This document shows, piece after piece, positions 15,951-35,629 of a stretch of 64,000 nucleotides of DNA. This stretch comes from Nitzschia sp. DOCU1. Its lineage: Eukaryota; Bacillariophyta; Bacillariophyceae; Bacillariales; Bacillariaceae. A program made the translations under genes and the position numbers. Numbering within the stretch: the first letter of the stretch is position 1; each line of letters opens with the position of its first letter. Below the pieces are notes generated by a model. The model saw only the letters and a program-made list of their open reading frames with translations. It was not told where the DNA came from and did not search any database. The stretch covers positions 930,001 through 994,000 of the forward strand of contig OX595987.1 in NCBI GenBank assembly GCA_951394045.1, in the 5' to 3' direction.

Positions 15951-18539
15951 CTATGGTTCCTCTGAAGTAGTTAGACGTGGCCTGGTCGCTGCGGCTTCCG
16001 CCTTCGCCAGATCAAACTCCTTCTTGTATACCGGCTGCTCCACTTGAGCCGTGATACTGGGTCTCTCAGTAGATGATGGCTTCTTCAACTCGACCTTGAA
16101 CAAAGGCTCCTCGTTGTGGGCAGAAGCACTGAGTCGTGCCTTGGCTGCTGCGGCTTCCGCCTTCGCCAGATCAAACTCTTTCTTGTATACCGGCTGCTCC
16201 ACCTGAGCCGTGATACTGGGTCTCTCAGTAGATGATGGCTTCTTCAAGTCCACCTTGAATAAAGGCTCCTCATTGTGGGCAGACTCTTCGGTGACGGACT
16301 TCTCTGCATGTTCCACCTTCTTCAGAGATACCTTATAAAGTCCAGTCTCTGCCGCTTTATCTGACGTGTCGGCCATGGGAGGAGCGATTGTTTCGGCCTT
16401 CTTCAATGTCAAATTGAAGGCGGGCTCCTTATTTTCGGTGACCTCAATCGCTGCAGGTTTCTCGGCTGGTTCAACATGCTTCAATCCAACTTTGAACGAT
16501 GGTTCCTGCGAAGCAGTGAGATTTGGCCTGGCTGCTCTAGCTTCCGCCTTCGCCAGATCAAACTCTTTCTTGTATACCGGCTGCTCCACCTGAGCCGTGA
16601 TACTTGGTCTCTCAGTAGATGATGGCTTCTTCAAGTCCACCTTGAATAAAGGCTCCTCGTTGTGGGCGGAGTCTTCGGTCTCAGGCTTCTCTGCATGTTC
16701 CACCTTCTTCAGAGGTACCTTATAAAGTCCCGCCTCTGCCGGCTTCTCCGATGTGTTGGCCACGGGAGGAGCAGGATCTTCAATCTTCTTCAATGTCGAG
16801 TTCAAGGCTGGCTCATTCATCTCACTGACCTCGTTCACTGCAGGTTTCTCGGCTGGTTCAACGTGCTTCAACCCAACCTTGAATGATGGCTCCTGTGACG
16901 TAGTGAGATTTGGCCTTGCTGCTCTAGCTTCCGCCTTGGCCAGATCAAACTCCTTTTTGTATACCGGCTGCTCCACTTGAGCCGTAATGCTGGGCCTAAC
17001 AGTAGATGATGGCTTCTTCAACTCCACCTTGAACAAAGGCTCCTCGTTGTGGGCAGAGGTAGTGGGCCCTCGTGCTTTGGCTGCTGCGGCTTCTGCCTTC
17101 GCCAGATCAAACTCCTTTTTATATACCGGCTGCTCCACTTGTGCTGTGATACTGGGTCTAACAATAGACGATGACTTCTTCAGATCGACCTTGAACAAAG
17201 GCTCCTCGTTGTGGGCAGACTCTTCGGTGACGGATTTCTCTGCATGCTCCACCTTCTTCAGAGGTACCTTATAAAGTCCAGTCTCTGCCGGCTTCTCCGA
17301 TGTGTGGGCCGCGGGAGGAGCAGGATCATCAATCTTCTTCAATGTCGAGTTCAAGGCTGGCTCATTCCTCTCACTGACTTCGTTCACTGCAGGTTTCTCG
17401 GCTGCTTCAACGTGCTTCAACCCAACCTTGAACGATGGCTCCTGTGACGTAGTGAGATTTGGCCTGGCTGCTCTAGCTTCCGCCTTGGCCAGATCAAACT
17501 CCTTTTTGTATACCGGCTGCTCCACTTGAGCCGTAATGCTGGGCCTAACAGTAGATGATGGCTTCTTCAACTCCACCTTGAACAAAGGCTCCTCGTTGTG
17601 GGCAGAGGTCGTGGGTCCTCGTGCTTTGCCTGCTGCGGCTTCTGCCTTCGCCAGATCAAACTCCTTTTTATATACCGGCTGCTCCACTTGTGCTGTGATA
17701 CTGGGTCTAACAATAGACGATGACTTCTTCAGATCGACCTTGAATAGAGGCTCCTCGTTGTGGGCAGACTCTTCGGTGACGGATTTCTCTGCATGTTCCA
17801 CCTTCTTCAGAGGTACCTTATAAAGTCCAGTCTCTGCTGGCTTCCCAGACATGTCGCCCGCGGGAGGAGCAGGATCTTCAACCTTCTTCAATGTCGAGTT
17901 CAAGGCTGGCTCACTCCTCTCACTGACCTCGTTCGCTGCAGGTTTCTCGACTGGTTCAACATGCTTCAATCCAACTTTGAACGATGGTTCCTGCGAAGTA
18001 GTGAGATTTGGCCTGGTCGCTGCGGCTTCCGCCTTCGCCAGATCAAACTCCTTCTTGTATACCGGCTGCTCCACCTGAGCCGTGATACTGGGTCTCTCAG
18101 TAGATGATGGCTTCTTCAACTCGACCTTGAATAGAGGCTCCTCGTTATGGGCAGAATTACTGAGTCGTGCCTTGGCTGCTGTGGCTTCCGCCTTAGCCAG
18201 ATCAAACTCCTTCTTGTATACCGGCTGCTCCACTTGCGCCGTAATACTGGGCCTAACAATAGACGATGTCTTCTTCAACTCGACCTTCAATTCTGGTGCA
18301 GGTGTTCCGATTTTATTTTCACTTGACGCTTCGCTAGGCGGCGCCGATTTTTTGAGGTCGACCTTGAAAGGGTTGCTCGGCTCAGGGTTCGAGGAGCTTG
18401 TCATTGGTTCCATTGCCACCTGAGCATCAACTTTTGGGTCTAAGCTCACGTGCTTCAAAGGTACCTTGAACGCCGGCACTTCCTTGTTCGTCGAGAAGTC
18501 CTTCTTTGAATCTGGGGCGGCAGCGACGGAGACTACCAT
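15951..18539 (-). CDS. Tandem-repeat charged protein with FKVxLKK motifs
   Basis: 862 aa from the ATG at 18539; the frame is open to 18794 but the upstream part reads like 5' UTR. It is built of about 183-residue super-repeats (549-bp period): three full, one shortened to 129 residues and a last partial one. Each contains the core PSITAQVEQPVYKKEFDLAKAE (nine copies in all) and the linked motifs EEPLFKVELKK, EPSFKVGLKHVE and GLYKVPLKKVE. Almost all residues are charged, Pro, Ala or Ser, so it should be extended or helical and soluble. The repeated FxxxLK[KH]xE core resembles the LKKTE core of beta-thymosin/WH2 actin-binding repeats; that is a hypothesis. Near-identical copies imply recent duplication. 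The end is truncated by a nonsense change (see 15901-15950). Confidence 0.75.
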   Translation of the reverse strand: MVVSVAAAPDSKKDFSTNKEVPAFKVPLKHVSLDPKVDAQVAMEPMTSSSNPEPSNPFKVDLKKSAPPSEASSENKIGTPAPELKVELKKTSSIVRPSITAQVEQPVYKKEFDLAKAEATAAKARLSNSAHNEEPLFKVELKKPSSTERPSITAQVEQPVYKKEFDLAKAEAAATRPNLTTSQEPSFKVGLKHVEPVEKPAANEVSERSEPALNSTLKKVEDPAPPAGDMSGKPAETGLYKVPLKKVEHAEKSVTEESAHNEEPLFKVDLKKSSSIVRPSITAQVEQPVYKKEFDLAKAEAAAGKARGPTTSAHNEEPLFKVELKKPSSTVRPSITAQVEQPVYKKEFDLAKAEARAARPNLTTSQEPSFKVGLKHVEAAEKPAVNEVSERNEPALNSTLKKIDDPAPPAAHTSEKPAETGLYKVPLKKVEHAEKSVTEESAHNEEPLFKVDLKKSSSIVRPSITAQVEQPVYKKEFDLAKAEAAAAKARGPTTSAHNEEPLFKVELKKPSSTVRPSITAQVEQPVYKKEFDLAKAEARAARPNLTTSQEPSFKVGLKHVEPAEKPAVNEVSEMNEPALNSTLKKIEDPAPPVANTSEKPAEAGLYKVPLKKVEHAEKPETEDSAHNEEPLFKVDLKKPSSTERPSITAQVEQPVYKKEFDLAKAEARAARPNLTASQEPSFKVGLKHVEPAEKPAAIEVTENKEPAFNLTLKKAETIAPPMADTSDKAAETGLYKVSLKKVEHAEKSVTEESAHNEEPLFKVDLKKPSSTERPSITAQVEQPVYKKEFDLAKAEAAAAKARLSASAHNEEPLFKVELKKPSSTERPSITAQVEQPVYKKEFDLAKAEAAATRPRLTTSEEP
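16234..18268 (-). repeat. 549-bp coding tandem repeat array (3 full + 1 shortened unit)
   Basis: The same sentences of sequence recur with a period of 549 bp (for example near 17155 and 17704, 16753 and 17302, 17302 and 17851). The unit next to the 3' end has lost about 162 bp (one 54-residue sub-unit), giving a 387-bp step. Confidence 0.85.
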
Positions 18540-22381: not shown

Positions 22382-22748
22382 AAGAGGTGCTACCGCCAGG
22401 ATTTTTCAATGGCTGGCTGGTAGTTGTGCGGCGGCGTCGCGGTGCGGGGATGGGGTCGCAGTTGAATTTGTACTGACTCCTACATACCCGCGACCATGAA
22501 ACCAAGGTTTGGTCGAAGGGATCAACAATTGACAATGACGACGACAGTGACGTAAGCACAAAAGCATCGACGGAGGGCGTACCGACAATTCGCCCACCAA
22601 CGATGCGATGACACCGCGTCTTCCCTCTTTTTTGTGTGACTCTGTGATTCCGGCACATCGACGCTTTCTGTTTTCTCGATAAGTCTTCCTCTCTATGCTT
22701 TTCTCGCCCTCATTTCTGTTGTCTTTTGTAAAGGGATGCAATAGCAGC
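22382..22748. other. Divergent promoter of CDK and CinA-NMNAT genes
   Basis: 367 bp between starts; pyrimidine-rich toward 22640-22740. Nothing else seen. Confidence 0.5.
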
Positions 22749-24374
22749 ATGCCTTCACTTCGACAATCGCGTCTTTCTCGACTATCTCTGTTCACGGTGT
22801 TATTTGGAGAACCAGTGACTTGCTGGGTCGGAAGTTCTAGACGCAGAGCTTTGCCATCAACGACTGCAGGAAGAAGTTTATTTTCCCTCCATCAGGGGCA
22901 ACAAAGCTTTTTCACTACCAACATGTCATTTTCGGAATCTGACGAAGATTACTCTATGAAGGGGCTGGAAGAATATGCAAAGTCTCTGATTGACTCCAAT
23001 GTGGCGTTGGAGCCTGAAAATCGAGCCAGTGTTTGTGTGTGCGTGGCTGGAGGCGGAGGGCATGCGATTTCGACTCTGGCAGCAACTTCGGGAGCGTCGT
23101 CAATGTTGTTGGAGGGGACTGTGGCATATGACCGTCGGGCCTTTCGTTCCTATGTCGGGTTGACAGCGAATAGCACTCGAGTTCGTTACAATTCTCTTGA
23201 AGCTGCAAAGCTAGCATCAGAGACAGCGCTGAAACGAGCCATGAATTTCAAGACGCATAATTTGAGGCAAATGAACGGGTGTGTGGGGGTCGGATGTGCG
23301 TCGGCGTTAGTCTCGTCGTCGTCCCCAGACAGTGTCAAAGGAAGTGGTTACATAGTGGCTACTAGAGCGGATGGGTCACAACTGTCGATTAATGTTACTC
23401 TGGCTGCTCAAGCCGATGTCAATCAACGGACGAGAGTAGAAGAAGACGTTTTCATCAGTCATCTCATTCTTCGGAGTATTGAACTGATCCGTCAGTCTAC
23501 AAAGGGTCTCGAGAAGAGGGACGAGACGCAAACAAATGCAGGTGATATCATTACGGAATTCTGGGGAACGTCTCTGGCGCACGATGGGCCAGAGGAAGAT
23601 ACGGCGTTTTGTGCCGCTCAGCGGCTCCTCGACGGGGATGAGCAGGCATTGGTTTTGCTCCCAGTTTACGAAGATGGCCGTCCAGTAAGATTCCGAGCCC
23701 TCAGATATCCTGTTATTCCCGACGGAAGTTTGGTCATGCCAGGAAGTTTCAATCCACCGCACAAAGGTCACATTTCGTTGGGACAAGCGGCAGTTCGTGC
23801 AGCTGAGCGAATGGGGTACTCAAGGCGCCACGAGGAGTTACCAATCTTTATGGAGTTGTCATTGACTAACGCTGACAAGCCCCCGATTGACCCGCAGATT
23901 GCTTCGGAAAGAATACAAAAGTTCTTACAACTTGAGGACCTACCGAACCAATGGGGACTTGTCTTGACGAGAGCACCTTTGTTCTCGCAAAAGGTTGCGT
24001 GCCTGCGGGACTGTATCATGGAAAGCTCGGATGGAAAGGATGGAAAGATATCGTTTGTTATTGGTGCGGATACTCTAGCACGTATCCTCAACCCCAAATA
24101 CTACAATGATGATAAGGATCAGATGATAGATGCATTGCTTTCGATGAGAGGAGCACATTTTTTTGCCGGCGGCCGAGTCGAGCAAAAGAAGGAGACGCCT
24201 GGTCCAGCACAGTTCATTACCGGCAAAGACGAGCTAAGTGGCCTTCCTCAGGAGGTCAAGGACAAGTTCACTATTATCGAGGAGCAAGAGTTCCGTGTTG
24301 ACATTAGCAGCACGGAGATTCGTCAACAGGAAGAATCCGAACGCCTGGCGGCAGCTCCAAAAGATCGCGCGTAA
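22749..24374 (+). CDS. Fusion of CinA-C (NMN deamidase-like) and NMN adenylyltransferase-like domains
   Basis: 541 aa from the ATG at 22749 (an earlier in-frame ATG at 22695 is possible). The first 60 residues (SLRQSRLSRLSLF...SSRRRALPSTTAGR) are Arg/Ser/Leu-rich, like a mitochondrial presequence. Residues about 70-230 match the CinA C-terminal domain: a GLEEYAKSL helix, VCVAGGGGHAIS, LLEGTVAYDRRAF and the GVGCASALV strand. Residues about 325-530 form a nucleotidyltransferase: MPGSFNPPHKGHISLG (HxGH), FVIGADTLARILNP and VDISSTEIRQQ (the ISSTxxR signature). CinA-C domains include NMN amidohydrolases and the second domain resembles NMN adenylyltransferases, so the two could act in sequence in NAD recycling. 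That link is inference. Similar fused proteins exist in plants as far as I recall. Confidence 0.82.
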   Translation: MPSLRQSRLSRLSLFTVLFGEPVTCWVGSSRRRALPSTTAGRSLFSLHQGQQSFFTTNMSFSESDEDYSMKGLEEYAKSLIDSNVALEPENRASVCVCVAGGGGHAISTLAATSGASSMLLEGTVAYDRRAFRSYVGLTANSTRVRYNSLEAAKLASETALKRAMNFKTHNLRQMNGCVGVGCASALVSSSSPDSVKGSGYIVATRADGSQLSINVTLAAQADVNQRTRVEEDVFISHLILRSIELIRQSTKGLEKRDETQTNAGDIITEFWGTSLAHDGPEEDTAFCAAQRLLDGDEQALVLLPVYEDGRPVRFRALRYPVIPDGSLVMPGSFNPPHKGHISLGQAAVRAAERMGYSRRHEELPIFMELSLTNADKPPIDPQIASERIQKFLQLEDLPNQWGLVLTRAPLFSQKVACLRDCIMESSDGKDGKISFVIGADTLARILNPKYYNDDKDQMIDALLSMRGAHFFAGGRVEQKKETPGPAQFITGKDELSGLPQEVKDKFTIIEEQEFRVDISSTEIRQQEESERLAAAPKDRA

Positions 24375-24668
24375 AGCGTAATCGTAATGTAAAACTCTAC
24401 GACTAAGAATCGAAAAGAGAGGAGGACGACTGCTAGTCTAGCGAGTAACGAATGAATCTTTTCGAATAACATCTCTGTTTAGGAAGGGTGTGTTGAACGG
24501 TAGCAGCGACACTGCAAAAGGAGGAAGATCAAGTTGATAGGCCCTTTGAAGTCAGTCGGGGAGAGAGCTACAGTAGATGAGAAAGGAAGTTTATTTGATA
24601 ACTATAGTCTATACGAATATTCAGAACGAGCATCTAAACTCGGGGTCGGGATAAGCAAAGGCTAGATT

Positions 24669-25262
24669 TTATGCCGCAGCGTTGGATAATGCATGCCGCC
24701 TGGATTCGGGACAGCCTTTGAAGATTCTTGGGGAGACCGACCGGCATGGGACTTTTGGGCTCATCATAATTGATGCGCCAAAGTTGCACAGGAGCACCTC
24801 TTGCATATCTCTTTGCGCTCTCATCCTCGCTTCAGTGACACATTGCGCACTGGCGTTGCGATAGGCAACGGCAAGAGCTTCATCATCAAACAAACCGCTC
24901 TCCCATTGAGCCTCCTGCTCTCGCATGACAGCGGCCCTTGCAACCTTCTTATTTCGCTGCCTCTTCATGTGGCCTTCTCGCGTTCGATGCTCGGTGCCTC
25001 GTAGACAATACTCCTCGTTGTCCTTACAATCTTGAGCGTCAGAGGAAACAAGTTCCACTGTCCGAAGGACGTCGTCCTTGCATTGCTCGAGCTCCGCGTC
25101 AGAGAACCAGCAAATTCGGAGCTCCTCAGCGGTATAATCATTCAAGTGAAGAGCACGACGAGCCGTCACACTCCTTTTAAAGGATACACGGGATCCTTTT
25201 CGTTGGAGTTCTTGGCATGAGGAAGACATGGTTGCAGAATTTGTGTCGGTGGATTGCAACAT
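24669..25262 (-). CDS. Second diatom-family protein (CLRGTE type), unknown function
   Basis: 197 aa from the ATG at 25262 (MLQSTDTN...); MSSSCQEL a few codons later is an alternative. Order of blocks: VSFKRSVTARRALHLNDYTAEELRICWFS, then EEYCLRGTEHRTREGHMKR, then a helical QWESGLFDDEALAVAYRNASAQCVTEARMRAQRD. This is the same layout as the 5328-6095 protein (strand, DYT/EE-W helix, C.RG.E, D.E.A..Y...EA...A..D), here with the DYT..E...W variant common in the family. The C-terminus is Cys/Arg/Ser-rich and less conserved. Role unknown; the family is abundant in diatoms. The frame is open to 25283, but only a non-ATG codon begins it there. Confidence 0.72.
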   Translation of the reverse strand: MLQSTDTNSATMSSSCQELQRKGSRVSFKRSVTARRALHLNDYTAEELRICWFSDAELEQCKDDVLRTVELVSSDAQDCKDNEEYCLRGTEHRTREGHMKRQRNKKVARAAVMREQEAQWESGLFDDEALAVAYRNASAQCVTEARMRAQRDMQEVLLCNFGASIMMSPKVPCRSVSPRIFKGCPESRRHALSNAAA

Positions 25263-26616
25263 GGTTTTTGTTGACACTTCCAATCGTAAAATTCAATTCG
25301 AAGACTATGAGCGTGTATTGCTTCTCATATCACCCTCAAATACGAGTAAGGGGCTTTTCCATGCTAGTACTAATAATAATTCATGGAGACGCCAATTTGA
25401 TGGACGGAAGGAAACGGAGAAACATATCGGCCAAGATGAAGGAATGTAGTCGGGATCCGGCAGCAAAATGTCAAAGTTTGCATAAAGTTGATCAAAGCTC
25501 CTCCAAAACGACCTTACAAGCACCAACGGTTTTGTCAAATATGCCTCTGACACAATGACGGGGTAAAACGGCCGAATTTGGATGAGGTCCGAGCATGTTC
25601 ACTTATGTAAACATTGTCCCAATAATAATTCTAGCATAGGGCCTTTCAAACAACCATAAATCTTAACTGACAGCCCATTAATGATGGTCTCGTGGGGTTC
25701 TTATTTGTCGGCTGAACTCCACCGAACGCCGCAGGCACGATTATGCCGGATCCGCCGCAAACGTGCGCGCGCTATTTTCGTACCTCGCGAGCGCTTTCTC
25801 GGAGTTGCGTCGCTCCGTTTCTTTTGAACGGGACACAGGATGATACCTTGTATCGTATGTACTATGTATACATGTCAATCCGACGTTCACCGTTTCACAG
25901 ACAACAACCAGCCGCCGATCCCGGGCACATTTTTTGCTCATCGGGACAAAACTTTTGATTCCGCGCGCGAGCGCGGAAAAAATTGTCGAACGAGCGAAAG
26001 TGCAACGACGACGACAACAACAAGACAACGACAACAACAACTCAAATCACAACAACGACTAACTCACAACCACGGGCACCAACCCTGCACCGTCCGGCAT
26101 GAAGCAACCAGTTGCTGATCCTGTCTTAACGGGATCGCCTGGTTGTGCCGGATGGTTATTTGGGTTGGTGTTGGCGGCTAGCGGAGGGATTGGTCAGCGT
26201 GCACTTCGGGTCCAAGACCCGCTGCAGACCATTCTCATGGCAACACCGCCCCCGGACGAGCGAAAGTGCAACGACGACAACAACAACAAGGCAACGACAA
26301 CAACAACTCAAATCACAACAACGACTAACTCACAACCACGGGCACCAACCCTGCACCGTCCGGCATGAAGCAACCAGTTGCTGATCCTGTCTTAACGGGA
26401 TCGCCTGGTTGTGCCGGATGGTTATTTGGGTTGGTGTTGGCGGCTAGCGGAGGGATTGGTCAGCGTGCACTTCGGGTCCAAGACCCGCTGCAGACCATTC
26501 TCATGGCAACACCGCCCCCGGCGGCACCGTAACAAAAACAACAAATGTCACCAGCTAGTCATGTTTCCAAGGTAAGCAACAGGTTTTGGAATAATATATC
26601 TCTATTATTATTCTTG
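25263..26616. other. Gene-poor island flank with tandem duplication
   Basis: 1.35 kb between the diatom-family gene and the transposase-like gene. It holds the 266-bp tandem repeat and AT-rich or CAA-rich stretches. Frames inside the repeat recur because the DNA is duplicated, and they show no domain. I could not identify terminal inverted repeats or target-site duplications. Confidence 0.55.
25991..26522 (+). repeat. 266-bp tandem duplication (two near-identical copies)
   Basis: Copy 1 is 25991-26256 and copy 2 is 26257-26522; both begin cgagcgaaagtgcaacgacg and end accgcccccgg(a/c). They differ mainly in the CAA/GAC-rich opening (for example an extra or missing triplet-like change near 26005 and 26280). 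The copies abut directly, as in unequal crossing-over or replication slippage. The unit includes a CAA/ACA-rich purine-pyrimidine stretch and a gcctggttgtgccggatgg segment. It lies beside the transposase-like gene. Confidence 0.92.
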
Positions 26617-29600
26617 CTAACATAAAGTGTCAGCATCAAGTCGAGCCAATTTTGCTGCCTTTTTCTTGGCTCGCAGCTCTGCCATCTTCTCGACTTTCCT
26701 TTTCTTTTCTACCGAGTCCTTCCACCTTTCTAATTCCTCTCCACAACAAGGGATCTGGAAGGCCACTCCTGCTCGATTACAATTTTTCCGATGGAATCCT
26801 CCACAGTCTGTAGTGAGACGATCACACAGTGGATACCAAGCACACCTGGCGCCTTGTTGGTCACTGGGGACCTTGCTGGTTTTCCTTGCTGTGCCTGGTG
26901 TGTGTAGAGGGGAACATCTGCGCTGCTTGCCTTCGATCTTGTGAGCTCATTGCGAAGCTCATTGTATTCTTTCCTTGTCTCTCTCATGAACACTTTCACC
27001 TCATGTGTTTGTTTCCATCGTCGGAACGATGCTTGGATTTGCGTTGGTAACTTAGGAAAAATCTTGATCCCATCATAACTTGCTTTGAAAGACTTGGCAA
27101 GTTCCTTGAAGTTTTTCATTGTGGCTTTCGGATGCCGAAGGAAGAACTCATTTTCCATGCGGAACTCTTCTGCTGTTTGCGATTGAAGAGGCGCACACTT
27201 TACCCCCATTTGACGAGCTAGCTCCCGCATGTCACCAGTCAGGTGATCCATTGGCTCCCCATGCTCCACGTAGTCATCAGAGTGTGTCAAAGGACCAACA
27301 CCGACCGAAACAAGGGGTGTAGCTTCAAAACTGGAAACATTGATGTGACTAGGGTATACCATCACGTTGTAGATTGATTGGATCAACATCTGGATCTCAT
27401 CGATCACATAGAGATGTGAGTGTCCGAAATCTATGTCACCTGCTCTTCGTATCCCTGTGCTAACATTGTACTTATAACCGAGCAGAAGCAAAAGGTAGTG
27501 GCCAATCAATACTCCAACAGCCCACGGGCCCATAGAGTTGCGCATTTTCTGATGAATATTTTCTGCACGAACCGAACCACGCAGCCGAAACCACAAGTCA
27601 AGGCCGTTGGCATCAACACCAGCATGTTTGTAGAGAGAGACATCTTTCAGTTCGGCAAAAGTACCTTCCAGAATCTTCTTGATTATGTTTTCAAACCACT
27701 TCTCAAGTTCTTCAGTGTACCACTTTGCACCCTTTGTCTTGCAGTAGTGCTGAATCTTCTTGAAGTTGCTCGCATGCTCTTCTTCCTGAAACACAGGCAT
27801 GCGAACATGCTCCCGCCAGTATTCCTTGTTATTGGCATAATGATCCAGGATATCCTCTTCGGCTACACCAGTTTTTTTCATCACGACAGCTTTGAAGGGC
27901 TCATAGTCTTCCTCGACAAATTGATGCGTCCCAATAATACAGAGGCGTAATAAGACTGGCCGAAGGGGGCATTTTCGCTCCAAAGGAACAGTGTCCCAGT
28001 GATGCCACAGGTCTTCCTTCAAGCGAGATCCAATGATGAAATCATCCTCATCATGATCGCTTTCCCCTGTGTCGTTGTCCTCATCATCATCCTCCAATCC
28101 TGCAGCCACATCAGTACCAGCAAAGAAGCTATTGTCGGAAGTGTCACTCTCGTCATGGTGGGGACCTTCTGCTTCCTGTGGGGGCGATGGTGGTAGCACA
28201 TCCACCCACAGGCTGGATGTGTTAACCATGGTGACAGGGTTACCACCACATTCCAGCAGTGTTCCAAGATTCATCCCAGAGGGCCAGGATTTCTCGTTGC
28301 TCTTGAAGATATACGGGAGCTTCGCATTTGGAACCGTGACTGTTTTTACTTCCACGAGGGCCTTGCCTTTGCCGCAGAGTAGGTTCCCCCACCTTCTACT
28401 CTCTCCACCAGTCTGAGCCCCAACAAACGTTACAATAACGTTTGCAACTTTCCGGCCACCAATCATCAAATCTGCACGGGATCCCACTTGTAGATTTTGG
28501 GGAGGCTCGACCATCGTTTTGCCATCATAGCGCTTATGCACGAGAGGTAGAATGGTGTCGACAAGCCGTAATGATAGGCGAGCATCAAGAGCCGCATACT
28601 TTGCAAGATGGCGGGGCAATGGCAAACTTGAATAGTCGTTCAAGTGACTTTGGCCAGATTTGTCGACATTTACACCCAAGTATCGCCGGCAAAGTGCTGC
28701 TAGACTTCGACCTTCGGGTTGATTGGCATCATGCCGCATGGCAAGGTATTGCAAATCAATAGAGCGTGTAATATTAACGCCCAACTTCCGTAGTCTAGCT
28801 AGATCACCACCAATCTGCACCCCACATGCAACCATCTCCCCATGTTCAAGAACATCTTTTAGGGCCCGTGGGAATGTTGCAGCACAGTCAACTCCCATTG
28901 CTGTAAGGTGAAATACAGCCACGGGTTTGCCTGGCAAGCAGATCTGTAGGACATGGGTAACTGATGAGTCGACACTGCCATCAAAGCTGTAGTTATTTTC
29001 TGTGTCTAAGCCAACATGGATAGGTTTGTCCTTGTTTCCAGCATTCATGACTCGGCAGGCAGCTGTTGCCCAGATTTTAGCCTGCGATGTGTTTGTAATG
29101 ATAACGTAATCATTGTCATCAATACTTGCCACAGGCAAGGTGGCATCCATGATGGTGACTACCGGAGGGGTCACGCCATCATTCAAGTCGTTCCCAAAAT
29201 GCTTTAGCCATAAGCTGCCATCTCCATTCAGATTGTCACTCTCGAATCGCCGAAGAGGTGGTGCCCTCGCATTTGCACGTGCTCCCTTGTATCCAGACAA
29301 AACATTATCAAGCTCCACTAGTGTCTTCGTGAATACAAAGACAGCAAGACTGATGAACCCTAGAAGAGTAGTGACAGTGTAACTTGCGCCAAAGATGCGA
29401 CCTTTGCGCCCAGTTGCTTTGATCACTTTTGAGAACTTGTGGGTATGGTCGGCAGTGGCACCATGATCATAACGTGTCTGGAAGGATGCTTGATAGAATG
29501 ACTCACGAGTAGTCATAAATTGCAGAAACAGGCGTCTCACTAGATTCTTTGATAGAATCATTCCATTGTAGTAACCCGTTTCTGCAAACTTGCCGAAGGG

Positions 29601-30731
29601 AATGGGAACTGGCGGCTCCAGATTGTAGGCTTCTTTGGCCAGCTTGCGACCAAGGGCACATCGGTAATATGATCGACGTGCAAAGTCATATTTGAGCTTG
29701 TATATGCTATTAAAGCAATTGGCAAACGTGCCAAATTGAATTCGATTTGGGACAAGCTCAATGAACGAGTAGAGCATCATCTCGTGCATGCCGGGTCCAT
29801 GCTCTGATGCAATGAATGGAAAGGTCTCGGCTATTTCAGTTGGAATATTGGCAGACATGAATGTTGGGTCAAACGATGCCCAGCTCTTGCCGCAGGTTGC
29901 ACATCGCAATCTTCTATGAATAACCCACACTATTTTGTCAAAGTAGAAAAATGGACGCCAATCATACTCGTGGGACTGCAAACTTTTTGCCTTGCATGAT
30001 TCATGCTTGCAGCAGCACTTTGTCATGTCTAGCTTGTTTTGAAGAAAGGGGTCCCAGAAAAAGCACCAGGTATCACCAAGATACCAAGGCTCAGGGTTGG
30101 CAGGATCTGCCGAGGCCACGGGGTCCACTGGAGGAGGAATGAAGTGTAGACCGTTTGTTTCCACTTGCTGCTTCATCATTCTATCATTCAGGTAGGAGTC
30201 TTTGACACTACGGATGTAGACATCAAGTGGTGAATGAACAGGAGGCTTGTATGCAGTGGATACACAATTCTTGTTATTGTTACGTGGTGCCACTTCGTCG
30301 TCATCATCATCGTCACAAGGCAGTTCATCCAGGACCTTGATTAATGAGCCCTCATCCATAACTTTCTTTAAAATCTCGATGGCACGTTGCCATTTTCCTT
30401 CATTGCGCTGATTAACTTGAGTGACATTTTGGTTCGTTGGGGTAGTAGTAGTGGTAGTCGTAGTCTTAGGAGGCAGTGGCCCATCTGGTGGCTGGTTGGA
30501 TTTTGTATTTCCCGCTACTGCGACGGGTGCATCAGGGGTAAAAAAGGTAGCAATGCTTGGCTGAGAGCGAGCAGCCTTCTTAAGTTTTGAGAGGCTGCCT
30601 GCTCCTTTTCGAGCACCGCCACTTCCTTTACCACCCATGTTACGGCCTTTGGTGCTTGTACAGTTGTCGAAGCAATTCCTTTTTGAATTGTTGTTGACCA
30701 AAAGAATGACACAGTTTTTGCGTTTTGGCAT
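26617..30731 (-). CDS. Transposase-like protein with DEDD 3'-5' exonuclease domain, C-terminal frame break
   Basis: One frame runs from the ATG at 30731 to a stop at 26730 (1333 aa). Order: basic Gly-rich start with QPSIATFF (about 56-63, a PCNA-box pattern); Cys cluster KCCCKHESCKAK (about 237) and RCATCGKSW (about 278); helical region; ADHTHKFSKVIK (about 427), like the first strand of a DDE/RNase H-type transposase core; RNase D/WRN-like exonuclease about 570-715 with GLDTENN, CGVQIGGDLARL and YAALDARLSLRL (DEDDy residues); an acidic linker; and a C-terminal helical part with RGSVRAENIHQKMRNSMG and GHSHLYVIDEIQ, as in large eukaryotic transposases. A conserved-looking Cys-rich tail (CAWYPLCDRLTTDCGG...KKAAKLARLD) lies in another minus frame down to the stop at 26617-26619. 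So a -1 frameshift or a poor intron occurs within about 26830-26990. Confidence 0.72.
26617..30731 (-). mobile_element. Probable DNA-transposon-derived locus (ends not found)
   Basis: Called from the coding content only: a transposase-like protein of more than 1300 aa, an adjacent 266-bp tandem duplication, and a gene-poor flank between ordinary conserved genes. I searched both flanks by eye for terminal inverted repeats and target duplications and found none convincing, so the limits given are those of the gene. It could be an active element, a decaying copy or a domesticated gene. Confidence 0.5.
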
Positions 30732-30740
30732 TGGCGGCAA

Positions 30741-31146
30741 GAGTCGTCACAAAAATGGCGCGATGCTTTGAATGACGTTGTAATCGTGCAAAGACCGCAC
30801 AAAAAGACTCACTAAATCCCCAGCGTTAGCCTTTTGAATGTCTCACATCCGATGTCAAGACATCCATGAGATGTCGTCTTTCCTATGTGACGTATCTGAT
30901 CAGATACGTCACATAGGAGACTGTCATATAAGGGCAGGCTATAATAATTACCATCAATGTCTCTAAGTGACGTATTCCCGGTGGGGAAAGCAGCTGCCCG
31001 ATCCCGAACGATCTCGACGATCCCTGGTATGATACGAGAAACAATGGCCACGGACGATCATGATACCCGGAGGCTAGAACGAAGGGGAACTAACCGGGGT
31101 TCAACGTTGTTCTTGTATTAAGGTATACCCCAGTTAGGTTAACGCC
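30741..31146. promoter_or_regulatory. Divergent promoter region with TGACGT cluster and large palindrome
   Basis: 405 bp between the transposase-like gene and THO2. TGACGT occurs at 30773, 30888 and 30968, with its reverse complement ACGTCA at 30906. The gatgtc/gacatc hexamers alternate at 30851, 30859 and 30870, forming small inverted repeats. TGACGT is the core of CRE/bZIP sites; in Phaeodactylum, CO2/cAMP-responsive elements use this core. Which of the two genes is regulated is unknown. Confidence 0.55.
30881..30918. repeat. 38-bp perfect palindrome containing TGACGT and ACGTCA
   Basis: All 19 base pairs match with no spacer, centred between 30899 and 30900 (core ctgatcag). Each arm carries the sequence gtgacgta. 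Such a perfect dyad could extrude as a cruciform or bind a dimeric bZIP on each arm. It could also be a relic of a foldback element. Confidence 0.95.
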
Positions 31147-34100
31147 ATGGCACCGCTGCCGAGTTCCAAGGAGGTACAAGATGCAGTGGCCTCGGGTGAC
31201 GCCGAAGCTGCCCAGAAATTGCTTGAAATCTTGGCTTTCGGGACCGAAATTGATGCAGCTGGCGATTTGAATGAGCGTACTAAAGATGCATGTAATGTTT
31301 TGGTTACCGTTTGGAAGGATCGTCCGGAGCTGGAGGACCTTCTGGTGGACGCTTTGTGGTTACGTGGCTGTGTGTTAACTTCGTCACCATCGAAGGCTGC
31401 CAGCGAAGATGCCCCACCGGCAGACACGCTGACGCCGTCGGTGGATGCACTAATCGCAATCATCAAGGCTATTATCGAAGTTCCCGGCAGAAACTCTTTC
31501 TATGTGAAGCTACAGAATAATTTGCTACCTTCCTTGCTAGCCGCGACAGGCCTGGCATCGGAAGAGGACCTTTTGAAGCGACTCAGGATCCACAACACTC
31601 AAGTCAACTACAAGCAACAAAAATACAATCTATTACAAGAAGAATCGGAAGGTTATGCAAAGGTACTGCAGTTTTTGCAATCTGGTAGTCTTGGTGAGGA
31701 AAATGAGCAAATATGTCGATTTCGTCAGTTGTTGGGGGCATTTGAGCTAGATCCGAATCGGGTCATGGATTTGATGATTGACACCCTTGAATCAAAATTG
31801 TATCCCCACGGAGTGGAGCATAACGAGGGGGGTACTCAAAAGCCCGAGAAAAATGAAGTTGTTGTGCGCTTGCTGGGGATGTTGCGGCTCTTACCCATAG
31901 GGAAGCTGCCTTCTCTGCTGAACTTCAAACTTTCATCGCATAGTGCAATATCGCAGGGACTGCTTCGGACAACAGCGTTCCTAGCTACCGAGGGCCTACT
32001 AGATCTATCGGTTATGATTGAGCAATATTGTTCAACGATTGAAAACGATATTGAAGAAGCCCATAAGGTTTTGTGGATGAAGGAGAAGAAGCGGATTCAA
32101 GCACTCACACGGATTAACCTTTCAGGCGCCACCAAGGAGGATCCTAAGCTGGTCGAACTCAAGGAGCGCCTACTAAAAGCGGTAATTCCGCTGTCATCAA
32201 ATCCTGTGATAAGTATTTTGTTGATTCTTTTACATTGGGGTGAATGGCACTATATCGAGTCACTACTTTCTCCGGTTTCTTGGGAATATCTGTGCAATTT
32301 GCTTCCAGAACGATTTGGATTTGCCTTTTGTGACATGGCTCAACGTCGACTGCAGCCATTTTTTCGAGCTAAAGTGGGTACTCCAGGTTTGTCAAAGCCC
32401 TGGCAGACAAACGAGGAAGCACCAGCGTCCGTCGATCCTGGGCTCGACGACGTTGTTGAGTCGGTTTCCGCGCCCTTGCGGCTTGTTGTTGATGCTGGCT
32501 GTATGGGGGTTCGCCCTGTCCTCTATTGTCAACTCTGTCGCGTTCTTCGTTCGATCCTGGAGGAGGAAGGACCAGAACATACTTTGAGCGATCAAACCTA
32601 CGATTTTTTCAAGCGGTTCCTTGTACCTACTCTTTCACTGTTTCCTTCTAACCCTGCTATTTCCACGGAACTTTGGTCTGTGTTGAAATGTTTACCTTAC
32701 GCTACACGATATCGATTATACGAAGATTGGAAAGGTATTGGACTGGAAAGGGAGGGTCTCGGAGCCTCTTATTCGTCTGGAAAGTCCTTACCAGTTGTTG
32801 AAAGTGAAATCAATGCTGGCAAAGCGGCACGATATGCATTGAAACGTCTATCAAAAGACAACATTCGGGATATGAGCAGACAGCTTGCTAAGGTGACACA
32901 TGCGTGTCCACTGGTGGTCTACGGGACTATTTTGAATCAGATTGAAAGCTATGACAATATGGTCGAAGTAATGGTTGAAGCTCAACGATTCAGCAATCCC
33001 CTTGGACTCGATGTTCTGGGCTTTTGCATCTTGAGCCGACTGAGTGGGACGAGCGGTGGGGTAAACCGAAATCGCTTGAAAGGTATGAATAATATTAAAC
33101 TTTGCAGTGGAATACAAGTCCCATCCTGTTGAGGATCAATTTTCGAATACGACCTGTGGTGTGCTTACAAGTACTTGTGTCCTTTCCGTTGGAATTCATT
33201 GGAATTGCCCTCTCATAGAGGATGGGGTCAACGTTTCTCAATGGTTGCAGTCTTTGGAAGCATTTTCTGGGGAATTCTTCAAGCGATATCCTTTTGTTGA
33301 ATTTAGAGGAATCCTTGCGTATCTCATGCGCAGATTACGCGAGGGTCATGTAATGGAACTTGGTATCCTTGGAACACTTATCAAAGTCGCCGGTGGGTAC
33401 AGCTTCGCAGATTATTCGCCAGCCGCATCGCTGTCGGCGACCCAATTGGAGGGTAGAGCGGGATCGTTCACGTTGAAGAGAGAAACTATGTCGTTTGGCA
33501 TTGTAGAGGAAATGAACCTCCGAGCGACGGATATCATCAAGGAAGTCCTACAAAGGGATGGGTTTGGGGTGTCGATGTTAATTTTGATTGCACAGGCACG
33601 GGCACGCATCGTGTTCGAGTCATCAAAAGGAGCACCCAAGCCCGTCAAGTTGGTTGGCAACCTATATGATTCTTGCCAGGTTGTGATTTCCATCCTACTT
33701 GAATTTTTGACGACTGACGAGCCTAAGGAAGGTGATGAAAAGACGGGGCAGGCTATTGAGGAGTACGCGAAGCAACTTCCGACTCTCGATGATCTTCATT
33801 TCAAGTATGGCCTTGACGTCGAGTGTGCGTGGATGTTGAATAGGCCGCTTGCCCGCAATGCCGTCACGAGCAAGGAGAGGGAAGTAGCCGAGACCATTTC
33901 CCCTCGCGAGAAGTATGAGAACATGCTTCCTGAAGATGCGTGGTCTCACTTATCACCAGCGCTTTTCGAGTTCTTCTACACGAGTTCGGTATATGATATA
34001 TTTTTCCCTGAGGAAGTCTATGCAGCGGAGTCCGGTAGAATAAGCAAGGAAATCGAAAGGAACGAACGTAACAAGGCAAGCGGAGCGCCCGCTGCTGTTC

Positions 34101-35629
34101 CAGTCGGCCCTAACCCACCAAAGAATGAAGCGGCAGAACTGGCCCGTTTGAACCGGGTTTCGAAACTCTTGATGGCTGAGAAGGACAAGCAGAAAGATCA
34201 CGTGGACGCTATCAGAGCGACCTTAGAGACGAAGATTGGTGATCTCATGAACTCAGATGTCGTGTCGCAGCAAGCTGCCAAGGCTCTTTTTTTGTATTGT
34301 GTGTATCCACGAAGCTTGCTAAGCCCAGACGATGCCATGTACTGTGCCCACTTTGCGTTGCAGCTTCACAAAATCGAGACGCCGGGTTTCAGTACTCTCC
34401 ACTACATGGATGAGTTAATTTCGGTAGTTTCGGGGTCGCTTTTTGGCCTGACTGAAGCTGAAGCTGCCAACTTGGCGATTTTGCTGTGGCAGACGTGGAC
34501 AGTGGTTAATAAATGGAGGTACGAAGAAGGCCTCTACGATTCTGAGGTTTTGGGGAAGCCCGGGTCTTACATGGAAGTCTCCAATATTCTGGAGGGGGAC
34601 GTCGCCGAGCAGGCGAGTCCTCAGGAAGTCCGTCACAAGGATTTCATTGCGTTATACAATACCTGGCATGCTACTCTTGGTACTGCGTTGATCGGTTGCC
34701 TAAAGTCCGTGGAGTACATGCATATGAGGACGGGCCTGGTTATTTTGACGCGAATCGTGGAGGTTTTCCCCACCCGTCCGAGGTTGGGAAATAAACTGAT
34801 AACTGCCCTTGAACCATTGCAAGACGAGAACAGCGCTCGCCCTGATATCCGCACATCTGCCAACGCCTACTGTACCATGCTTCTAAGAGCCCGCGATGAT
34901 GGAAAATGGATCGAAGAGGATGCAGCTGTTGCAAAAGCACGCGCCGACAAAGACAGGGCGGCTGCTGAAGAAAGGAAGAAGAAATTGGAGGAACAATTTG
35001 AAGAACTCCAAAGGGATAGCGAGAAGATCACGGAGGAGATAGGACCCCGCGATGGCTTTGATCGTCGAAGGGATGCTCGTCCTTTTGGAGGTCCCAACAG
35101 AGGAGCAGGCCCTCCGCCACCCGATCGAGGACGGGGAGGTCACCCCCCACCACCGAGTAGGGAAAATGGAGAAATGGTAGGTCGAGATTCGCGGGATCAC
35201 CCAGACCGACGTTCCCCTGCGAGAGAAACCGAACGCAGGAGAGAGTGGGAAGGCGGCCGTTCCGGCGATCGTGGACACGGCAGGGGTGATTCTCTGCCGA
35301 ATTCTGCTGTTAGGAGTGGAGAGAGGCACCCGTCCGAACGGGGGCGACGAGATGGCGGCGGTCGCGCTGACGACAGAGACGGGGGGAGATGGGTTCGAGG
35401 CGAGACAGCACCTCCAGCTGTTAGCGCGACTAGAGGAAACGGTGGCAGAGGCTCGAAGAGAGGCCGATCTCGTTCCCCTGAGCCGGGCAGCGATGATCGC
35501 GGCAATCCAAAGCGCGCTCGGGTCGAGCCAGAGGCGGGATTTGATTCCAGAAGAGAAAGCTCGCCACCGAGAAGGGGTAGAAGTGGTCCAGACACGTCAA
35601 AATCAAGAGCCCGTCGCAGCAGGAGATAG
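31147..35629 (+). CDS. THOC2: THO complex subunit 2 (mRNA export), Arg/Gly/Asp-rich tail
   Basis: join(31147..33082,33219..35629), 1448 aa. Taking the acceptor at 33218 (ctctcatag) rather than a much nearer AG gives a 136-nt intron and the continuous LSRLSGT...NRLKEDGVNVSQWLQSLEAF, matching the SSWLQSLASF block of animal THOC2. Family landmarks: VNYKQQKYNLLQEESEGYAKV and AFELDPNRVMDL (N-terminal third), PLVVYGTILNQIESYDNM, RYPFVEFRGILAYLMRRLREGH, LEGRAGS and KLVGNLYDSCQV, then the Tho2 C-terminal region with VFPTRPRLGNKL. The last 170 residues are RG/RD/SR-rich, usual for RNA-binding tails. THO couples transcription to export in the nucleus. No targeting signal. Confidence 0.9.

What the first reader, a model, noticed from the sequence alone, without database searches (positions are those of the whole stretch)
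26617..30731. Transposase-like protein carrying a DEDDy 3'-5' exonuclease domain
A WRN/RNase D-type exonuclease (with GLDTEN, a GGDLARL block and YAALD) sits inside a protein with a Cys cluster, a DDE-like core and a C-terminal helical part typical of large transposases. An exonuclease in a transposase is uncommon and could trim donor ends or process intermediates. I do not know a described family with exactly this order.
Basis: partly seen in the sequence, partly recalled or inferred. Interest (0 to 1): 0.75.

Follow-up and report, generated by a model that had tools for sequence, protein, structure and literature searches.

The report
Transposon whose transposase carries an exonuclease
This is a jumping gene (a cut-and-paste DNA transposon) whose transposase has a DNA-trimming exonuclease built into it; that combination was already described in 2013 as part of the Dada group, but the clear ends, insertion footprints and tandem arrays seen here add detail.

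Summary
ORF 26730-30740(-) carries a DEDDy exonuclease (PF01612, E=9e-12) inside a transposase, in the order D431, D502, exonuclease, D910xxH913, E1060. Kojima & Jurka (2013) describe this order in Dada transposons of Laccaria and Ectocarpus.

The ORF lies in a 5075-bp element (25924-30998) flanked by the 8-bp duplication CGATCCCG. Shortened copies and diverged relatives occur in the same 52-Mb eukaryotic genome. Of 23 insertion sites examined (a selection), 17 have an exact 8-bp duplication; no RNA gene was found at the sites tested. Published Dada makes 6-7 bp duplications, lacks terminal inverted repeats and targets small RNA genes, so this is a variant branch. Exonuclease residues are kept in every aligned row that covers them. 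In the one pair tested the exonuclease has the lowest dN/dS (0.04, against 0.13-0.14 around it).

Unexpected: in seven tandem arrays the copies are separated by 6 bp (six arrays) or 7 bp (one) of the duplication, not by 8.

No structure could be predicted, so the DDE core rests on alignment. The window copy is probably defective: its C-terminal Cys cluster lies in another frame.

The parts
25916..25923 (.). left 8-bp target site duplication CGATCCCG
   Evidence: identical to 30999-31006; the only exact 8-bp pair flanking GGCA...TGCC around the ORF, 0.006 expected by chance; ends agree with four shortened copies
25924..30998 (-). whole transposon, 5075 bp, GGCACATTTTTT ... AAAGCAGCTGCC as read on the + strand (coding strand is minus)
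25924..25978 (.). terminal stretch shared with non-autonomous copies on C11 (two), C7 and C14
   Evidence: 93-95% identical
25987..26518 (.). subterminal tandem repeat, two copies of 266 bp, 99% identical
26730..30740 (-). ORF of the transposase-exonuclease, 1336 aa (likely start Met35 at 30638)
29892..30011 (-). N-terminal CCCC zinc-finger-like cluster, C244/C249/C280/C283
   Evidence: residues; same C-x4-C and C-x2-C spacing as printed for Dada-U6_DR
29448..29450 (-). D431, predicted first catalytic Asp (ADHTHK)
   Evidence: 18 of 18 covered rows
29235..29237 (-). D502, predicted second catalytic Asp (SDN)
   Evidence: 17 of 17 covered rows
28545..29036 (-). DEDDy 3'-5' exonuclease domain, residues 569-732 (D579, E581, D646, Y715, D719)
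   Evidence: PF01612 E=9.4e-12; residues kept in 17 of 17 (D579, E581) or 19 of 19 (D646, Y715, D719) covered rows
28002..28013 (-). DxxH motif, D910-H913 (KEDLWH)
   Evidence: 18 of 18 covered rows
27561..27563 (-). E1060, predicted third catalytic residue (RGSVRAENIHQ)
   Evidence: 18 of 18 covered rows
26779..26844 (-). C-terminal Cys cluster, in a different frame from the ORF (that frame is open from 26946 to the stop at 26617)
   Evidence: an aligned cluster is present in P0001-P0006
30881..30918 (.). 38-bp perfect palindrome, subterminal, kept in the four shortened copies
30800..30998 (.). other terminal stretch shared with the non-autonomous copies
   Evidence: 88-92% identical at four places
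30999..31006 (.). right 8-bp target site duplication CGATCCCG

Best explanation
The finding is the transposase gene of a 5.1-kb cut-and-paste DNA transposon of the exonuclease-bearing Dada type. A zinc-finger-like N-terminal part presumably binds the ends (inferred). A DDE/RNase H-like core (D431, D502, E1060, with DxxH) would cut at the element ends and join them to target DNA with an 8-bp stagger; the 8-bp duplications are shown, the chemistry is inferred. A DEDDy 3'-5' exonuclease sits between the second Asp and DxxH and is conserved and constrained (shown). It most likely trims 3' ends exposed during excision or joining (inferred; also the published suggestion; I put about 0.55 on this step alone). 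In this genome the branch makes 8-bp duplications, has short GGC/GCC-type termini, was found outside detectable RNA genes, and forms tandem arrays with 6-bp spacers (shown for the loci examined). The window copy itself is probably no longer able to make a complete protein.
For: Domain order equals that printed for Dada-1_ES and the Laccaria elements. D1-D2 spacing is 71 residues against 68 in Dada-U6_DR. DDE, DxxH and DEDDy residues are kept in every row that covers them, 17-19 of the 22 rows (19 proteins) of alignment A3 according to site, and also in L055 and L057. Of the ten invariant Asp/Glu columns of the nine-sequence alignment A2, eight are predicted active-site or DxxH residues; D1043 and E1192 are not. 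Exact 8-bp duplications at 16 of 21 sites and at L055/L056; with L057/L058, a 7-of-8 match, 17 of 23. L032 and L034 are 99.96% identical full-length copies with different duplications, so transposition was recent. dN/dS between L032 and L033: exonuclease 0.040, before it 0.144, after it 0.127.
Against: Published Dada has 6-7 bp duplications, no terminal inverted repeats and small RNA genes as targets; none of these was met here. No Pfam transposase family matched the window protein or its relatives (E<=1; E<=0.1). In a profile search of solved structures all 40 matches lie in the exonuclease part (profile positions 517-746), none in the presumed DDE parts. No fold could be predicted. Repbase Dada sequences could not be compared. 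The dN/dS contrast is one pair with 3 non-synonymous changes in the exonuclease. P0012 has gaps at D502, D579 and E581. Four of 23 sites lack an intact duplication (L036, L051 none; L037, L040 with an indel).
Confidence: 0.85

Rival explanations
1. The exonuclease-bearing elements are a separate superfamily that only resembles Dada: 8-bp duplications, GGC/GCC-type termini, no RNA-gene targets.
For: Duplication length, termini and targets all differ from published Dada.
Against: The exonuclease-bearing Ectocarpus and Laccaria elements were placed in Dada by their finders, with the same order, N-terminal CCCC cluster and DxxH. Their termini are not given in the text I read.
Confidence: 0.2
2. 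The exonuclease is a passenger that does not act in transposition, for example an enzyme used against host or rival nucleic acids.
For: No activity has been shown; Kolobok lineages carry various other accessory nucleases.
Against: It is inside the catalytic core, not at an end; all five residues are kept in every covered row, and it is the most constrained part in the one pair tested.
Confidence: 0.15
3. A domesticated host gene derived from a transposon.
For: The only other long protein match in its genome is 34% identical; a closer one (88%) covers just 60 residues.
Against: It still has both ends, an exact target duplication, deletion derivatives elsewhere and a C-terminal cluster in another frame, as expected for a decaying transposon.
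Confidence: 0.03

Closest known systems
Dada-1_ES (Ectocarpus siliculosus) and the Laccaria bicolor Dada elements, Kojima & Jurka 2013, PMC3706591
   Same: DDE core with DxxH, N-terminal CCCC cluster, DEDDy exonuclease between second D and DxxH
   Different: Their ends and duplications are not stated in the text read; sequences not compared, because Repbase and Dataset S1 were out of reach
RNA-gene-targeted Dada (Dada-U6, -U1, -tL, -tA, Perkinsus), same paper
   Same: DDE and DxxH; tandem Dada-U1 copies separated by 6 bp while 8 bp appear to flank the insertions
   Different: 6-7 bp duplications, no terminal inverted repeats, insertion in snRNA/tRNA genes; in the text read the exonuclease is reported for Laccaria and Ectocarpus elements only
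KolobokD, PMC9587614 (passages seen)
   Same: DDE transposon that encodes a 3'-5' exonuclease
   Different: DEDDh (DnaQ) type, not DEDDy; Kolobok duplicates TTAA (recalled)
WRN exonuclease and EXD2 (solved structures)
   Same: closest solved relatives of the exonuclease domain: 2e6l E=7.8e-35, 6k17 E=2.3e-25 by profile
   Different: cellular proteins, not transposases

Membership tests
Dada superfamily | catalytic DDE triad | tested here: met
   D431 18/18, D502 17/17, E1060 18/18 covered rows; by alignment only, no structure
Dada superfamily | DxxH motif between second D and E | tested here: met
   D910, H913 in 18/18 covered rows
Dada superfamily | N-terminal CCCC zinc finger | tested here: met
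   C244/C249 and C280/C283 in the window protein, pair spacing as in Dada-U6_DR; not complete in distant relatives such as L032 and L026 by this alignment
Dada superfamily | C-terminal CCHC zinc finger | tested here: inconclusive
   Cys cluster at 26779-26844 with other spacing and in another frame; clusters in P0001-P0006
Dada superfamily | length 4666-10979 bp | tested here: met
   5075 bp
Dada superfamily | 6-7 bp target site duplication | tested here: not met
   8 bp exact at 17 of 23 sites examined
Dada superfamily | no terminal inverted repeats | tested here: not met
   short inverted termini, GGCA/TGCC in the window, GGCACCT/AGGTGCC in L029
Dada superfamily | insertion into small RNA genes | tested here: not met
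   no tRNA at 16 of 16 rejoined sites; no Rfam match in 18 occupied loci, a test that could miss a gene split by the insertion
Dada superfamily | introns in all members except those of Perkinsus | tested here: not met
   single open frames of 1596, 1506, 1524 and 1558 aa in L026, L032, L033 and L055; in the window the frame is single through E1060, an intron before the C-terminal cluster is not excluded; L022, L024 and L030 are split for reasons not tested
exonuclease-bearing Dada (Laccaria, Ectocarpus) | DEDDy exonuclease between second D and DxxH | tested here: met
Dada superfamily | groups with Repbase Dada sequences in a tree | not testable with these tools
   Repbase not held; no look-ups in supplementary files allowed
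Kolobok (KolobokD) | TTAA duplication (recalled) and DEDDh exonuclease | tested here: not met
   none of the 16 exact duplications listed contains TTAA; the exonuclease has the Tyr of DEDDy at 715
hAT, MULE, KDZ and other Pfam transposase families | match to a curated Pfam model | tested here: not met
   no transposase model at E<=1 for the window protein or P0001-P0007, none at E<=0.1 for P0008-P0012

The most novel reading that the evidence does not exclude
Exonuclease-bearing Dada is a distinct branch, perhaps its own superfamily, with an 8-bp stagger, and its tandem arrays record an end-processing step. Each 6-bp spacer is what one expects if a second copy inserts into an 8-bp target made of six bases of the old duplication plus the first copy's terminal GG or CC, while the incoming copy has lost its own two terminal nucleotides at that end, possibly to the exonuclease.
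Probability: 0.2. Interest if true: 0.65.

Novelty: new variant of a known kind. Interest (0 to 1): 0.42.

Why it matters
A transposase with its own 3'-5' exonuclease raises the question of what end-processing step other transposases leave to the host. The 2013 paper reported the fusion, but in the text I read it gives no ends or duplications for the exonuclease-bearing elements. This genome has several diverged families with defined ends, near-identical full-length copies and tandem arrays, so the role of the exonuclease could be tested. The 8-bp flank with a 6-bp tandem spacer also bears on the published choice of a 6-bp duplication for Dada-U1, which was made partly because tandem copies were 6 bp apart. 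The extra weight is modest, because the fusion itself has been in print since 2013.

Tried and rejected
Kolobok lineages with other nucleases were considered and rejected on exonuclease type and duplication. An automatic scan of 11 sequences for GGCA/TGCC ends with 8-bp repeats gave pairs for five: window, L022, L029, L032, L033. The L022 pair (2239/8484) is contradicted by copy comparison: its ends are 2483 and 8674 with a 7-of-8 duplication. L029 rests on the scan alone. The scan found nothing for L023, L024, L025, L028, L030 and L031. The fuzzy search misplaced element starts by a few bases, so its empty duplication lists are an artefact; the ends were redone. For tandem arrays, plain insertion of a second copy exactly into the 8-bp duplication predicts 8-bp spacers, and plain insertion overlapping the old terminus predicts two extra bases beside an outer duplication; neither is seen (my reading). 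The exonuclease as sole cause of the 6-bp spacers is weakened because zebrafish Dada-U1, for which the text read reports no exonuclease, shows the same spacer. One pattern scan of viral contigs matched 15 stretches, none a relative. A paper search for DUF6729 gave none.

Selection of sites. The 23 sites are not a random or complete sample. Searches listed 32, 22, 28 and 68 matches; I fetched the stretches (15, 1 and 20) and later two arrays. Matches to the 266-bp repeat and several weaker ones to the right end were not examined for ends. Fetched but left out of the 23: L041, L042, L043, L054 (no second end found), L044 (array whose other outer end was not reached), L045-L047 (flanks like those of L044, not independent), L050 (truncated end, though GATTCAAC occurs on both sides), and L023, L024, L025, L028, L030, L031.

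Full report
Observation. The window is G000:C3:930001-994000 of an unnamed 52-Mb, 63-contig genome. The neighbouring gene at 31147-35629, read as two overlapping frames, is THO complex subunit 2, so the genome is eukaryotic. ORF 26730-30740(-), 1336 aa, contains PF01612 at residues 569-732 (E=9.4e-12) and no other Pfam family at E<=1.

What it is. Seven relatives were found in the protein database and five more with a profile. Aligned with proteins of the same genome they share a fixed order: Cys cluster, D431, D502, exonuclease, DxxH (D910, H913), E1060. One search examined 22 rows from 19 proteins (L022, L030 and L024 are two rows each). Residues are kept in all rows that cover them: D431 18/18, D502 17/17, D579 and E581 17/17, D646, Y715 and D719 19/19, D910 and H913 18/18, E1060 18/18. 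The remaining rows are gapped there (one, L024, shows a non-aligned stretch at the E1060 column of its first piece); for P0012 the gaps include D502, D579 and E581. L055 and L057, fetched later, fit too. In the nine-sequence alignment A2 the invariant Asp/Glu columns are D431, D502, D579, E581, D646, D719, D910, D1043, E1060 and E1192: eight of ten are predicted active-site or DxxH residues.

Published precedent. Kojima & Jurka 2013 (PMC3706591; [quoted passage not shown] That is the architecture seen here. Three other papers were seen as passages only: PMC9587614 (KolobokD with a DEDDh exonuclease), PMC3985635 and PMC12477816 (one Dada family listed in Ectocarpus). Paper searches were made; one search found two papers that hold 'Dada transposon', exonuclease and transposase, PMC3706591 and one on casposons that I saw only in the listing.

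Mobility. A DNA search with 24380-31140 in the same genome gave paired terminal matches at four shortened copies of 0.9-1.0 kb: two in tandem on C11, one on C7, one on C14. They fix the ends of the window element at 25924 and 30998 with an 8-bp duplication CGATCCCG. More distant families in the genome have full-length or nearly full-length open copies: L032, L034 and L033 (5.1-5.2 kb), and the arrays L026/L027, L055/L056 and L057/L058. L032 and L034 are 99.96% identical but have different duplications.

Duplications. Of 23 insertion sites examined, 17 have an exact 8-bp duplication: 15 of the 20 in the table, the L026/L027 array printed in the same call, and L055/L056. Two match at 7 of 8 (L022; L057/L058, my reading). 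Two are near matches with an indel (L037, L040) and two have none (L036, L051). A control scan of 34 placements elsewhere in the window found 0 with 0.12 expected. As I read the ends, elements begin with GGC at all 23 sites and end in GCC at 22; L020 ends in GGC. Rejoined flanks of 16 sites gave no tRNA, and 18 loci gave no Rfam match. Rfam was run on occupied loci, so an RNA gene split by an insertion could be missed.

Tandem arrays. Seven arrays were read. Spacer against outer duplication: L019 GCCATT of GCCATTTG; L026 AAAACG of GAAAAACG; L035 CTCGGA twice, of CACTCGGA; L044 GTAACA of GTAACATC (left flank only); L038 ATCCCGT of AATCCCGT; L055 CCTTTG of CCTTTGTT (one of its two junctions read); L057 TAAAAG of TAAAAGAG/TAAAAGCG. 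Six arrays have 6-bp spacers and one has 7. Copies within arrays are 97-100% identical where compared. Kojima & Jurka saw 8 bp around Dada-U1 insertions but chose 6, partly because tandem copies were 6 bp apart, and did not rule out 8. Here the 8-bp flank is supported by many unrelated sites, so spacer and duplication differ in length in this branch.

Selection. Between L032 and L033 (1504 codons) dN/dS is 0.125 overall, 0.144 before the exonuclease, 0.040 in it (3.0 non-synonymous and 21.0 synonymous changes over 161 codons) and 0.127 after it. This is one pair with few changes, but it argues against a passive passenger.

The window copy. The ORF stops at 26730. The C-terminal Cys cluster that aligns in relatives is at 26779-26844 in a frame open from 26946 to 26617. 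A frameshift in this copy is the simplest account; an unrecognised intron is not excluded. The nearest internal relative is a 0.2-kb fragment on C1, 95% identical.

Limits. The DDE core was not confirmed by structure, and a profile search of solved structures matched only the exonuclease part. Genome match counts are lower bounds by the tool's own statement, and the 23 sites are a selection. PF01612 has 36 matches in the genome, a mixture of host genes and transposons that I did not sort; DUF6729 (PF20499) has 3, at copies of one family. The kind of host organism was not tested.

Verdict. A real, recently active set of DNA transposon families with an embedded exonuclease, of a kind already described, in a variant with 8-bp duplications and defined ends. 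The strongest unexplained regularity is the 6-bp tandem spacer.

Noticed in passing
L019, L026, L035, L038, L044, L055/L056, L057/L058: Tandem copies of these transposons are separated by 6 bp (one array 7 bp) of the 8-bp target duplication; no junction read has all 8.
   Followed up: partly
P0008 (protein database, 1737 aa): A relative with the same transposase-exonuclease order carries a C-terminal Ulp1-type protease domain, PF02902, E=1.3e-21.
   Followed up: no
window 22695-24374 (+): ORF of 559 aa with a cytidylyltransferase-like match; the part before it looks CinA-like to me from memory, which would make an NAD-salvage fusion. Not tested.
   Followed up: no
window 15988-17768: Long tandem repeats with units of about 160 and 387 bp, 87-95% matches.
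   Followed up: no
window 31007-31146: The transposon with its duplication ends 140 bp before the first ATG of the THO2 frame, so it may sit in that gene's promoter.
   Followed up: no
window 30881-30918: A 38-bp perfect palindrome near one end is kept in the four shortened copies; its role is unknown.
   Followed up: no
L024 6778-9900 (-): A reverse transcriptase-like ORF (PF07727, RVT_2) lies beside the split exonuclease-transposase copy on C10.
   Followed up: no
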